A stretch of 34,982 bases of DNA from a bacterium (GTDB taxonomy: Bacteria > UBP6 > JAFGXH01), in the NCBI GenBank assembly GCA_027064085.1, contig JAMOQH010000138.1, forward strand, positions 1 through 34,982, in the 5' to 3' direction. Below are positions 2,872-18,871 of the stretch, piece by piece. A program made the translations under genes and the position numbers. Numbering within the stretch: the first letter of the stretch is position 1; every line of letters begins with the position of its first letter. The notes beneath the pieces were generated by a model. It was given only the letters and a program-made list of their open reading frames with translations, did not search any database and had not been told where the DNA came from.

Positions 2872-3993
2872 CTAAACAATAACTTCAATAAGTCCTACAT
2901 AAGAACTTATCGTCTCGTTTTCTGAATAGTTAAATTTTTCTTCAATTTCTTGATATTTTTTTCGTTTTTGTTTGCTATTATTAGATTCTGATTCTGAGTT
3001 TGTATTTTTATCAAATGAAAATGATATGTCATTACTTGCTTTTTTGATTTCTGAAAATAGATTTTTAAGAGATGTTTGATTGTTATTTAATAGTTCTAAT
3101 GTTTCGTGTTTTTGTACTTTAATCTCCACCTTTGTACTTTTTTTAATCATTGATATATTAATTTCTAATTTACCCAAATGTTCAGGAGTTAATTTAAGAA
3201 CAACTTGTTTTCTGTTATTTTGGCTCATATATGTAATGGAGTCTTGTAATTGAGTTTTAATAGACTTCATTGTTTTATAATTGTTTGTTTGTGTTTGATT
3301 TATTGATTTATTGATTGCTTTTTGAGTAAAATTATTTTTATTTGATAATAAATTTAGATTTTCTTTAAAATTTAATTTTTCTTTTAAGGAATTATTGATA
3401 TGTTCATTGCTTTTCTTTTTATGTGCAGGTAATTTTATTTCATTTTTAAAAATGGAAGATTTAAGACTAGAATTCTCATTTCTTTCGTTTCTTTCATTTT
3501 TATCATTAAGGGGGTAAGTTTGTGATTTACCTTTATTTGTAGGTTTGGTATTTTTATTTTGAGAGAACTGCTTAGCAAAAATAATATTGGTAAATTCCTC
3601 TCCTTGAGCTTTGCTCAAAAATGAAGTGGGGGCAATAATGTTGACGGGTGCGGGAGTTGTTTCATTTTTTGTTTTTTTGGGTGAGAATATATTTATTTCT
3701 TTTTCACTTTTTATTTTTTTGTTTATTTCTTTCATTATTATAAATTGAAAATCTAGTTCTTTTACTACTTTAGTGTTTTTTTTATTTTTTTTATTTATTA
3801 TATTATGAGGCTCCATAATAGGATGAGGCTGTTTTATGATAGAAGGAGCTGTTGCCTTATCATGGGGATTTGCTGTTTTATTATGACCAACCTTATTAGG
3901 ATTACTCATCACCGCCTTATTGGGACGAGTCACCGCCTCGTCCCTACGGTGGTGGTGACTGTTTTTTTCAATTTTTAATGATGATATGTTCAT
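2872..3993 (-). CDS. fliK: Flagellar hook-length control protein FliK, with an in-frame palindromic insert
   Basis: A 373-residue, Lys/Asn-rich, low-complexity protein. The C-terminal third (about 240-330) matches the FliK/Flg_hook domain, with KQVVLKLTPEHLGKLEINI followed by a helix-rich segment. FliK measures hook length and switches export specificity; its N-terminal part is normally poorly conserved. Position directly before flgD supports the call. An AGGGG ribosome site precedes the ATG at 3993. Residues 18-24 (DEAVTRP) are encoded by a GC-rich palindrome at 3919-3947, and the next residues (NKAVMSNP, NKVGHNKT, NPHDKATAP) look like decayed repeats of the same unit. The insert keeps the frame open and falls in the variable N-terminus. 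The symbol rests on the C-terminal domain and context. Confidence 0.85.
   Translation of the reverse strand: MNISSLKIEKNSHHHRRDEAVTRPNKAVMSNPNKVGHNKTANPHDKATAPSIIKQPHPIMEPHNIINKKNKKNTKVVKELDFQFIIMKEINKKIKSEKEINIFSPKKTKNETTPAPVNIIAPTSFLSKAQGEEFTNIIFAKQFSQNKNTKPTNKGKSQTYPLNDKNERNERNENSSLKSSIFKNEIKLPAHKKKSNEHINNSLKEKLNFKENLNLLSNKNNFTQKAINKSINQTQTNNYKTMKSIKTQLQDSITYMSQNNRKQVVLKLTPEHLGKLEINISMIKKSTKVEIKVQKHETLELLNNNQTSLKNLFSEIKKASNDISFSFDKNTNSESESNNSKQKRKKYQEIEEKFNYSENETISSYVGLIEVIV
3919..3947. repeat. Palindromic element copy A, inside fliK
   Basis: Two 13-nt arms (3919-3931 and 3935-3947) surround a 3-nt loop. The inner eight bases GGGACGAG/CTCGTCCC pair perfectly and the right arm ends CCCTAC. 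On the fliK strand the core reads in frame as DEAVTRP. The element is GC-rich against a strongly AT-rich background. Decayed 21-24 nt relatives (CCTTATT-containing units) extend leftward to about 3850. It belongs to the same family as the copies at 11461-11552, 12000-12027, 18189-18214 and 18295-18315. Confidence 0.8.
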
Positions 3994-4072
3994 ATTTAAC
4001 CCCTTAATATATAAAAAATCGTCTTTATAGAGATAAACTTGAATATTAATTTTATTTTTTGTTGATTTTCCT

Positions 4073-4078
4073 TATAAT
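4073..4078 (+). promoter_or_regulatory. Putative -10 box for the CAP-domain gene
   Basis: A consensus TATAAT lies 43 bases before the ATG at 4122, in the gap between divergent fliK and the CAP gene. No good -35 hexamer is found at the right distance, so the assignment is tentative. Confidence 0.4.
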
Positions 4079-16486: not shown

Positions 16487-18138
16487 TGTTTAAAGGTCTT
16501 TTGGATTCTTATCTTAAAAAAGTTGAAAAAGTAATAGCTCGTTTTCCTGAAAGAAAAGGCACTTTTTTGAATACTTCTAAAATTATTTTAGAAAGATTTT
16601 ATTATAATAAAAATGATGAGAATTATTTAAAAAAACTTGGTTTTCCAGGTTTTTATCCTTTTACTCGTGGGATACAACCAACTATGTATAGGTCAAGATT
16701 TTGGACTATGAGGCAATATGCAGGGTTTTCTACCGCAGCTGAAAGCAATAAAAGATACAAATATTTATTAAATAGTGGCACAACAGGGCTTAGTGTAGCC
16801 TTTGATTTGCCAACTCAAATGGGATATGATAGTGATAGTGAGTATTCTATAGGTGAAGTTGGTAAAGTTGGAGTTGCTATTGATTCTTTAAAAGACATGG
16901 AAATCCTTTTTGATGGAATTCCACTGGATAAAGTTTCAACTTCAATGACTATTAATGCAACTGCTAGCATATTACTAGCAATGTATATTGCTGTGGCTAA
17001 GAAGCAAGGTGTTTCATTAGATAAAATATCAGGTACTATTCAAAATGATATATTAAAAGAGTATATGGCCAGAGGTACTTATATTTATCCTGTAGAATCA
17101 TCACTAAGAATAATTACTGATATTTTTGAATATTGTTCTACTAGTGTTCCTAAATGGAATACTATTTCCATAAGTGGTTACCATATACGAGAAGCTGGTT
17201 CTACGGCTGCACAAGAATTAGCATTTACTCTTGCAGATGGTATCGCTTATATTGAGTCAGCACAAAAAAGAGGGCTTGATATAGATGTATTCTCTAAAAG
17301 GTTATCATTTTTCTTTAACGCTCATAATAACTTTTTTGAAGAAATTGCAAAATTTAGAGCTGCAAGAAGAATGTGGGCTAAAATTATGAAAGAAAAATTT
17401 AAAGCTAAAAAAGATTCTTCTATGCTTTTTAGGGTTCATACTCAGACAGCAGGTTCAACTTTAACTGCACAACAATCTGAAAATAATATTGTAAGAGTTA
17501 CTTTACAAGCTTTAGCTGCAGTTATGGGGGGGACACAATCTCTTCACACTAATTCTAAAGATGAAGCATTAGCTCTTCCTACAGAAGAAAGTGTTCAAAT
17601 TGCTTTAAGAACTCAACAAATAATAGCCTACGAAAGTGGTGCAGGTGATGTTATTGATCCATTAGGTGGTTCATATTACATTGAGAGTTTAACTGATAAT
17701 TTAGAAAGCCTAGCATGGGATTATATAAATAAAATAGAAAATATGGGTGGAATGATTAAAGCTATTAACAATGGTTATCCTCAAAAAGAAATTGCCGATG
17801 CATCTTTTAAATATCAAAGAGCGGTTGATAGTGGCGAAGAAATTATTGTTGGTGTTAATAAATTTCAATCTCCAGAGGGTGTTGAAAAGAAACCTAACTT
17901 ACTAAAAATAGATGACTCAATCAGAAATGTACAAGTAAAAACTTTAAACGAAGTTAAATCCCAAAGAGAGAATGAAGATGTTAGAATAAAATTAAAAGAA
18001 TTAAAAAATGCAGCAGAAGGAAGTAAAAACTTAATGCCATTTATAATAAATGCAGTTGAATCCTATGCTACGCTAGGTGAAATATCAAATATATTTAGAG
18101 AGGTTTTTGGTGAATATGAAGAAAACATCATCTTATAA
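16486..18138 (+). CDS. Methylmalonyl-CoA mutase, catalytic (TIM-barrel) subunit without B12 domain
   Basis: The product is about 550 residues. Of two adjacent ATGs (16483 and 16486), the second has the better distance from GGAGG at 16476-16480. Family motifs are present: [123 protein letters not shown] and IVGVNKF. The Tyr in RQYAGF and the Arg in MARGTY match residues that favour methylmalonyl-CoA over isobutyryl-CoA or 2-hydroxyisobutyryl-CoA substrates. The cobalamin-binding domain is absent, so it must pair with a separate small subunit, as in archaeal and some bacterial enzymes. Its role would be propionate or succinate metabolism. Confidence 0.93.
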
Positions 18139-18871
18139 AAAAGAAGATAAGAAAAAAACAGGAAGAGCAAACAAATACAAAAAGCCTAGTAGGGATAAGT
18201 CGTTGACTTATCCCGATAAAGAGGTGACTTATCCCGATAAAGAGGTGACTTATCCCGATAAAGAGGTGACTTATCCTACTAAGGCTAGCGGCAAGGACGA
18301 GTCGGTGACTCGTCCTGTGAATAAAAAAAATAAAAAAGAAGAGTTAGTAAAAGATAAAACAAGTTTTGACCCATATTACAATAAACAATCTCGTAAATAT
18401 AAAATTACTTGTTTTGTGTGTAAAAAAGAAAAAATGGTTGCTGTTGAACCAATTGAGGGCGTTCCTGTTATTTGTGATGATTGTTTAGTAGAGCTTGAAG
18501 CTAGAAAACTACTAGATCAAGGTGGAGCACAAAAAACCAAAAAACTAAATTGTAAGTGGTGTGGAAAATCCTTTTATGCATTAAATGAATCGTATTTATT
18601 TTGTGATGAATGTTATGACCACTTTTCTCATACAATTAAAGCAAGAGGAAGAGGTTTTGTCTCTTATAAATGTAAAAATTGTGGTGCAGATGGTTGGATA
18701 CACCCAAAAGTCTTGGCAGAAAAGAAAAAAGAAAATGATATGCCTTTATGTAGAGCATGTATGAAAGAAGAAGAGCAAAAAGCTAAAAAAGAAAAGAGCA
18801 AAAGTAGAATCAATAAAGTTAAAAACAGAAAAAATACTTTGTCTACATCCAATAATCCAAAAGATAAATAG
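18116..18871 (+). CDS. Zinc-ribbon protein with a palindrome-derived tandem peptide at its N-terminus
   Basis: The start at 18116 ([14 protein letters not shown]) overlaps the mutase by 23 bases; an ATG at 18077 is possible but has no site. The 251-residue protein is very basic. Residues 27-67 are DKSLTYP, three DKEVTYP repeats, TKASGK and DESVTRP, all encoded by palindromic element DNA. The rest has three zinc-ribbon-like modules: C99/C102 with C120/C123, C146/C149 with C163/C166, and C186/C189 with C212/C215, all CxxC pairs. A nucleic-acid-associated role is suggested by the charge and ribbons, and by truA just downstream, but the function is unknown. The basic C-terminal tail adds to this. 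Confidence 0.8.
18189..18214. repeat. Palindromic element copy C1, inside the zinc-ribbon gene
   Basis: Left arm GTAGGGATAAGTC (18189-18201), loop GTT (18202-18204), right arm GACTTATCCC (18205-18214), ten perfect pairs. In the gene frame the core reads DKSLTYP. The family end TAC is missing here because a tandem unit follows at once, but ATCCTAC reappears at 18273-18279 after the last unit. Confidence 0.85.
18215..18277. repeat. Three 21-nt tandem units encoding DKEVTYP
   Basis: Units run 18215-18235, 18236-18256 and 18257-18277; the first two are identical and the third differs at its last base. Each 21-nt unit equals seven codons and gives DKEVTYP, and each looks like the right half of the neighbouring palindrome plus a changed left half. 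Confidence 0.9.
18295..18315. repeat. Palindromic element copy C2, inside the zinc-ribbon gene
   Basis: GGACGAGTC (18295-18303) and GACTCGTCC (18307-18315) pair perfectly around the loop GGT. It encodes KDESVTRP in frame. Its stem core GACGAG/CTCGTC is shared with the fliK and tilS copies rather than with copy C1 only 80 bases away. Confidence 0.85.

What the first reader, a model, noticed from the sequence alone, without database searches (positions are those of the whole stretch)
3919..18315. Palindromic repeat family invading unrelated genes in one reading frame
Short GC-rich palindromes (13-nt arms, 3-nt loop, ends GTAG and CTAC) occur in fliK, tilS and a zinc-ribbon gene. All coding copies use the same frame and give D[E/K][S/A][V/M/L]T[R/Y]P ([28 protein letters not shown]). 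The copies share a 21-nt core in genes that are not homologous, which chance cannot explain. The stems covary while still pairing (GACGAG/CTCGTC, GATAAG/CTTATC, GACAAG/CTTGTC). Rickettsia palindromic elements are known to insert in-frame in this way; I know of no such family described for a flagellated lineage like this. The GTAG...CTAC ends also recall REP-like palindromes moved by RAYT (Y1) transposases.
Basis: partly seen in the sequence, partly recalled or inferred. Interest (0 to 1): 0.92.

Follow-up and report, generated by a model that had tools for sequence, protein, structure and literature searches.

The report
Selfish DNA hairpins tucked inside genes
A short hairpin-forming DNA repeat of the known REP kind has spread to about 100 places in this bacterium's genome, mostly inside working genes and nearly always in the one reading frame that adds a harmless water-loving peptide, so it is a clear case of selfish DNA that lives within proteins.

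Summary
The genome (3.65 Mb, 195 contigs) holds about 98 palindromes at up to 3 mismatches, against 2-3 for the reversed pattern. I collected 102 copies at 55 sites; 44 sites are inside genes. Of 41 independent genic sites, 37 use one frame, S[K/R]D[E/K][S/A]xx[R/H/Y]P; about 12 would be expected if every stop-free frame were equally allowed. The stem covaries, including the synonymous Asp codon position. The family is absent from 27 same-phylum genomes, and both same-family TilS orthologues lack the peptide.

The element fits GTAG-tagged, partly 'double-foot' REPs. Four RAYT (REP-associated transposase) genes are present; three carry such repeats inside their own ORF, as published for RAYT subclass 2.4 (PMC6006769). 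Intragenic GTAG REPs are also published (PMC3733652).

Unusual here: the mostly genic distribution, a coding-biased subfamily (GG type 32 of 36 sites in frame inside genes; GAGAC type 3 of 12), and in-frame arrays grown from the hairpin at 20 of 41 genic sites. Mobilisation by the RAYTs is inferred, not shown. New variant of a known kind.

The parts
2872..3993 (-). fliK-like gene (373 aa) carrying one copy near its N terminus (HHRR-DEAVTRP-NKAVM)
3919..3947 (-). REP-like copy in fliK: GTAGG-GACGAGGC-GGT-GACTCGTC-CCAAT, frame 0, G.A mismatch at the seventh stem position
3905..3919 (-). degenerate half-unit downstream of the fliK copy (AATAAGGCGGTGA, peptide NKAV)
   Evidence: sequence; direct repeat with the tilS copy (D10)
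11460..11554 (.). intergenic GAGAC-type cluster: one arm repeated three times (period 20), hairpin core 11507-11525, other arm repeated twice, outer arms CCC/GGG
11588..12859 (-). tilS-like gene (423 aa) carrying one copy
   Evidence: ORF; homologues in 25 of 28 same-phylum genomes
12000..12027 (-). REP-like copy in tilS: GTACG-GACGAGTC-GAT-GACTCGTC-CTAC, peptide DESMTRPT; part of a 13-residue segment missing from both same-family orthologues
11986..11999 (-). degenerate half-unit after the tilS copy (peptide KAMT)
18077..18871 (+). zinc-ribbon gene with two copies and three half-units in a Lys-rich N-terminal linker; the likely start is the ATG at about 18116
   Evidence: weak treble-clef zinc finger match below cut-off at residues 107-137
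18189..18214 (+). REP-like copy GTAGG-GATAAGTC-GTT-GACTTATC-CC, peptide DKSLTYP
18215..18280 (+). three half-units with a 21-nt period, DKEVTYP, in which the right arm and loop are repeated and the left arm is degenerate
   Evidence: (D2)
18291..18318 (+). second copy GCAAG-GACGAGTC-GGT-GACTCGTC-CTGT, peptide DESVTRP

Best explanation
This is a population of GTAG-tagged REP elements of the 'double-foot' kind. They are non-autonomous hairpin elements, most likely copied as single-stranded DNA by the RAYTs (HUH/Tyr REP-associated transposases) encoded in the same genome. Insertions in genes survive when they fall in linkers between domains and in the one orientation and frame that is always free of stops and encodes a hydrophilic peptide, S[K/R]D[E/K][S/A]xx[R/H/Y]P. 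After insertion the hairpin often seeds a local tandem array of in-frame units (21 or 24 nt half-units of loop plus right arm, or 30-105 nt larger units), probably by slippage or fold-back template switching. Shown here: the repeats, the frame bias, the stem covariation, absence from relatives, RAYT genes with embedded repeats, arrays kept in multiples of three. Inferred: that the RAYTs move the elements, the array mechanism, and that the frame bias comes from selection against bad peptides.
For: About 98 copies against 2-3 for the control. 44 genic and 11 intergenic sites. 37 of 41 genic sites in frame 0 against 11.9 (sd 2.8) expected over stop-free frames. Stem pairs: 89.5% of cells paired, 37 double changes against 16.1 in shuffles, slid controls 33-50% paired; single-strand DNA folding z-scores of -3.3 to -8.1. 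Absent from G001/G002 and 25 other same-phylum genomes; a 13-residue TilS segment is lacking in both same-family orthologues. Four RAYT genes, best NCBIfam match REP_Tyr_transpos at E 1e-21 to 5e-15 for those scanned, with HUH and Tyr motifs aligned. Three of them embed repeats between those motifs: GGAY type at C192, GAGAC type at C182:61.5 kb, GGGGCGAG type at C185. Of 20 host proteins with a placeable Pfam domain, 19 have their inserts outside it (my tally). 20 of 41 genic sites are arrays and all have a period divisible by 3; intergenic periods are 18, 20, 22, 24, 70, 74 and 83.
Against: No RAYT gene is flanked by copies of this family; copies are embedded in three, and the fourth has a different GTAG hairpin about 110 nt downstream. 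RAYT scores are below NCBIfam's curated 80-bit cut-off. No insertion event was seen between close strains: the nearest genomes are in another genus, and only TilS, and less exactly ABC-F, give a usable empty-site comparison. Two genes share an array including its spacers (L080, L081/L089), which points to recombination as well as transposition.
Confidence: 0.76

Rival explanations
1. A selected peptide module: the DE[S/A]VTRP peptide itself is useful (a linker, a tag or a binding motif) and was spread between genes by recombination, the palindrome being a by-product.
For: One frame only, hydrophilic peptide, location in linkers. Shared arrays with spacers in two genes. A longer coding unit NKSSDxxSSKDKAxPxPTNGEK recurs in about seven genes.
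Against: The synonymous third base of the Asp codon covaries with the second base of the Arg/His/Tyr codon: 21 T-A and 10 C-G pairs, 2 wobble, 2 unpaired. The same palindrome occurs between genes and in frame +1. The peptide varies (R/H/Y/C/N/S) as the stem demands.
Confidence: 0.08
2. REP-like hairpins that now spread mainly by host processes (slippage, fold-back template switching, recombination between similar Lys/Asp-rich coding tracts), with little or no present transposition.
For: Half of the genic sites are arrays. Outer flanks of the same site are complementary more often than flanks of different sites: 12 sites at score 6 or more against 3 expected, 0 of 2000 permutations. A Maf-like gene has 16-nt host-derived outer arms (L282).
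Against: It does not explain how the same core reached some 40 unrelated genes. The four RAYT reading frames are open and three carry repeats of the family.
Confidence: 0.14
3. A Rickettsia-type palindromic element (RPE).
For: In-frame coding palindromes in unrelated genes, as in Rickettsia.
Against: RPE-4 and RPE-6 are CGTC-tagged with 4-5 nt loops, and CGTC repeats lack a dedicated transposase (PMC3733652). This family is GTA[N]G-tagged with a 3-nt loop and sits in RAYT genes.
Confidence: 0.015
4. Chance or ancestral sequence.
For: None beyond one false match (L093).
Against: Controls of 2-3 against about 98; absence from relatives.
Confidence: 0.005

Closest known systems
RAYT/TnpA-REP subclass 2.4 with 'double-foot' REPs (Quentin et al. 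2018, PMC6006769)
   Same: GTAG at 5' and CTAC at 3' (GAGAC type and part of the genic copies); REPs inserted in frame within the RAYT gene between the HUH and Tyr motifs; NH[IFV]H-like and YIxNNP-like motifs; various phyla.
   Different: That paper describes REPs flanking as well as inside the gene; flanking copies were not found here for the three RAYTs with embedded repeats. The parts of it that I read do not report a REP population that lives mainly in host genes.
Intragenic GTAG REPs of Di Nocera et al. 2013 (PMC3733652), most numerous in O. terrae
   Same: GTAG-tagged short-loop palindromes inside ORFs, including DNA-metabolism genes.
   Different: There most REPs are intergenic; here 44 of 55 sites are genic, and a frame bias beyond stop avoidance is measured.
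Stenotrophomonas maltophilia REP, group 3 (PMC8266576)
   Same: 8-bp stem, 3-nt loop and GTAG foot; the RAYT cleaves single-stranded REP at CT.
   Different: Different stem sequence; no biochemistry exists for the present family.
Rickettsia palindromic elements
   Same: In-frame coding insertions in unrelated genes.
   Different: RPE-4/RPE-6 carry another tag (CGTC) and another stem-loop, with no RAYT link.
PARCEL palindromic repeat coding elements (PMC2996958)
   Same: Coding DNA with dyad symmetry in tandem arrays.
   Different: 25-residue amphipathic repeats; a GTAG tag or RAYT is not part of the abstract's description.

Membership tests
GTAG-tagged REP | Short palindrome (stem 6-13 bp, short loop), high copy number in one genome | tested here: met
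   8-13 bp stem, 3-nt loop, about 98 copies
GTAG-tagged REP | GTAG/GTRG tetranucleotide at the foot | tested here: inconclusive
   GTAG in GAGAC-type and GTAGG copies; many genic copies read GTAAG, GTACG or GTATG
GTAG-tagged REP | Mostly extragenic location | tested here: not met
   44 of 55 sites are genic; the usual location rather than a required feature, since Di Nocera 2013 also lists intragenic members
RAYT-mobilised REP (REPtron) | RAYT gene with HUH and Tyr motifs in the genome | tested here: met
   Four genes; NF047646 best hit, below the 80-bit cut-off
RAYT-mobilised REP (REPtron) | RAYT gene flanked by two inverted REPs of its family (PMC2817692) | tested here: not met
   No flanking copies seen within about 1.5 kb; embedded copies instead
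RAYT subclass 2.4 | REP inserted in frame in the RAYT gene between HUH and Tyr motifs | tested here: met
   C192, C185 and C182:61.5 kb, and the RAYT of G001; the G002 RAYT as well, though that gene is partly masked
RAYT subclass 2.4 | Phylogenetic placement within the subclass | not tested
   No reference sequences of the subclass were on hand; motifs only
RAYT-mobilised REP (REPtron) | Cleavage and strand transfer of the single-stranded REP by the RAYT | not testable with these tools
   Needs purified protein
Rickettsia palindromic element | RPE-4/RPE-6: CGTC tag, 8-9 bp stem, 4-5 nt loop | tested here: not met
   GTA[N]G foot and 3-nt loop
MITE | 70-300 bp with terminal inverted repeats and target-site duplication | tested here: not met
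   About 28-nt element; no constant target duplication seen by eye in the aligned flanks

The most novel reading that the evidence does not exclude
One REP lineage (the GG type, 32 of 36 sites in frame 0 inside genes) has adapted to live in coding DNA: its stem and foot have evolved so that one frame is always open and encodes a tolerable linker peptide, and the hairpin then feeds growth of in-frame repeat arrays that lengthen host linkers. Its sister lineage (GAGAC type) stays mostly between genes.
Probability: 0.35. Interest if true: 0.75.

Novelty: new variant of a known kind. Interest (0 to 1): 0.58.

Why it matters
It gives a dense natural data set (about 40 interrupted genes, including CheA, DnaX, FtsK, TilS and an ABC-F protein) on how a selfish hairpin can add peptide to conserved proteins. 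It also pairs each embedded repeat type with its own RAYT gene, so that RAYT-REP specificity and the origin of linker repeats can be tested directly. If the coding-adapted reading is right, these are not 'extragenic' palindromes at all.

Tried and rejected
Chance and ancestral origin (rejected). Stop avoidance alone as the cause of the frame bias (rejected: 37 seen, 11.9 expected). L093:8501 counted as a copy (rejected: conserved peptidase motif). Clean empty sites for DnaX and CheA (failed: linkers too variable to align); the GltD-like protein of L276 against PDB relatives (the palindrome fills a variable linker of similar length); the metallophosphoesterase against PDB (only one weak match). 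Naming the organism through methylmalonyl-CoA mutase (best relatives 68%, many phyla; not resolved). Plasmid and virus collections: near matches in three plasmids and exact matches in two viral contigs only. A solved structure for the RAYT by sequence (none). The pattern AGGTCAGAA...TTCTGACCT in relatives: six copies each, in a long ORF only within the RAYT gene.
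Full report
What is there. The window contains a short palindrome in a fliK-like gene (core 3924-3942, minus strand), tilS (12004-12022, minus), a zinc-ribbon gene (18194-18212 and 18296-18314, with three degenerate units between) and an intergenic cluster (11460-11554). The core is GAYRAGKC-NNN-GMCTYRTC. At up to 3 mismatches the full palindrome gives 99+97 strand hits, about 98 copies, against 3+2 for the control. 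65 copies match the core exactly.

Where the copies lie. I took 44 stretches around copies and found 102 copies at 55 sites after removing one false match. By a simple codon-usage gene call (coding fraction 0.94, probably a little high; G+C 27%) 44 sites are genic and 11 intergenic. Merging genes split over contig ends leaves 41 independent genic sites: 37 in frame 0, 4 in frame +1, none in frame +2. Because stop codons close some frames, I counted the open frames of each actual 28-nt element in both orientations. Uniform use of open frames would give 11.9 (sd 2.8) in frame 0, so stops alone do not explain 37. The other open frames give basic or hydrophobic peptides (for example RMSHRLIL), so selection for a tolerable peptide is the simplest further cause (inference).

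Hairpin-level constraint. On 37 genic frame-0 representatives (A1), 89.5% of cells pair (shuffles 82.5%), 37 cells change on both sides (shuffles 16.1), and sliding the partner drops pairing to 33-50%. The synonymous Asp codon base pairs with a non-synonymous base of the sixth residue (21 T-A, 10 C-G, 2 T-G, 2 unpaired). Shuffle numbers are not probabilities, and the copies are related, so this supports but does not prove independent compensations. At the seventh stem position 10 of 37 genic copies have G opposite A on the coding strand and none has T opposite C. Single-strand DNA folds: z = -3.3 to -8.1.

Host genes. Pfam places hosts as FtsK, DnaX, CheA, an ABC-F protein, GH3, an FAD oxidoreductase, a TonB-receptor fusion, an AraC regulator, a Ser/Thr kinase, RDD, GAF, NlpC/P60, TPR, ankyrin and metallophosphoesterase proteins. 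In 19 of 20 hosts with a placeable domain the inserts lie outside the domain envelopes (my tally from those tables; the metallophosphoesterase is the exception).

Derived, not ancestral. The core is absent from both same-family genomes (G001, G002) and 25 other same-phylum genomes. TilS orthologues of G001/G002 (about 42% identity) lack a 13-residue segment that contains DESMTRPTKAM. An ABC-F orthologue lacks roughly 22 residues there. DnaX and CheA linkers are too variable to say.

RAYT link. Searching with one RAYT finds four genes in this genome and others in G001 and G002. NCBIfam's best family for the four and for the G001 gene is REP_Tyr_transpos (E 1e-21 to 5e-15, below the curated cut-off), and their HUH (M-P-N/D-H-x-H) and Y-Y-E-H-I-I-R-N or similar motifs align. 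Three have an in-frame insert just after the HUH motif that carries palindromes: seven copies at C192, mostly GTAGGGATAAGGC type; GTAGAGAC type at C182:61.5 kb; GTAGGGGCGAGG type at C185. The G001 RAYT embeds different palindromes, and so does the partly masked G002 RAYT. This is the arrangement published for RAYT subclass 2.4, with 'double-foot' GT[AG]G...C[TC]AC REPs (PMC6006769). An 8-bp stem with a 3-nt loop and GTAG foot is also the Stenotrophomonas REP, whose RAYT cleaves single-stranded REP at CT (PMC8266576). That the present RAYTs move the present elements is inferred.

Two subfamilies. Elements with g..c around the core are genic and in frame 0 at 32 of 36 sites; those with a..t (GAGAC...GTCTC) at 3 of 12 (Fisher p = 7e-5). 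The GAGAC type also occurs singly in a genome of another phylum (L122) and, at 90-97% identity, in plasmids of Spirosoma, Emticicia and Bacillus, so it is not confined to this lineage.

Arrays. 20 of 41 genic sites have repeated loop-plus-right-arm units; every first period is a multiple of three (21 five times, 24 three times, then 30 to 105), whereas intergenic sites show 18, 20, 22, 24, 70, 74 and 83. In several genes only the right half is reiterated (DESLTHP-ATGSLTHP-ATGSLTHP in L082; DESVTHP-TTEVTHP in L107), and the junctions suggest fold-back: in L104 the outer arms CCTCAATAGTAGG/CCTACTATTGAGG are followed at once by CGGTGACT, the loop and right arm again. Flanks of one site are complementary beyond the element more often than flanks of different sites (12 against 3 at score 6 or more; 0 of 2000 permutations), although local composition may add to this.

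Compared with what is known. GTAG REPs, intragenic GTAG REPs and REPs inside RAYT genes are all published (PMC3733652; PMC6006769). Rickettsia RPE-4/RPE-6 belong to the CGTC group (PMC3733652). I therefore file this as a GTAG/RAYT REP variant, noting two features not met (mostly extragenic location; RAYT flanked by its REPs). What I did not find described is a REP population that is mainly genic with a measured frame bias and hairpin-seeded in-frame arrays; the paper library searched is partial.

Noticed in passing
L079, L084, L085, L090, L108, L111, L114 (around the copies): A longer coding unit of about 24 residues, roughly NKSSDxxSSKDKAxPxPTNGEKK, surrounds the palindrome in about seven genes and is similar at the DNA level; it may be an older, larger in-frame element.
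   Followed up: partly
L282:1440-1560: A Maf-like gene holds a GGCGAG-type palindrome in frame +1 whose 16-nt outer arms (AATTACAATATTGGGT/ACCCAATATTGTAATT) include host sequence next to the conserved ADT motif, as if the host flank had been copied in inverted orientation.
   Followed up: partly
genic copies, stem position 7: G opposite A on the coding strand in 10 of 37 copies and never T opposite C; the cause of this polarity is unexplained.
   Followed up: partly
contig ends of C24, C56, C72, C105, C116, C141: Assembly breaks coincide with arrays of the repeat, so array lengths are probably underestimated.
   Followed up: no
G001 C338 and G002 C208 (L235, L236): RAYT genes of both same-family relatives embed other palindromes in frame (RSESISDL; EETGHALSLR) within low-complexity repeats.
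   Followed up: partly
L274, L275: Two IMG/VR contigs of one sample carry a perfect double-foot GTAGAGACAAGGC palindrome.
   Followed up: partly
window 14608-15901: Three adjacent paralogous genes that look like bactofilins (repetitive pattern in the translation); not tested.
   Followed up: no
window 32461-32811: A 117-nt tandem repeat encodes EGF-like Cys-rich units in a putative lipoprotein.
   Followed up: no
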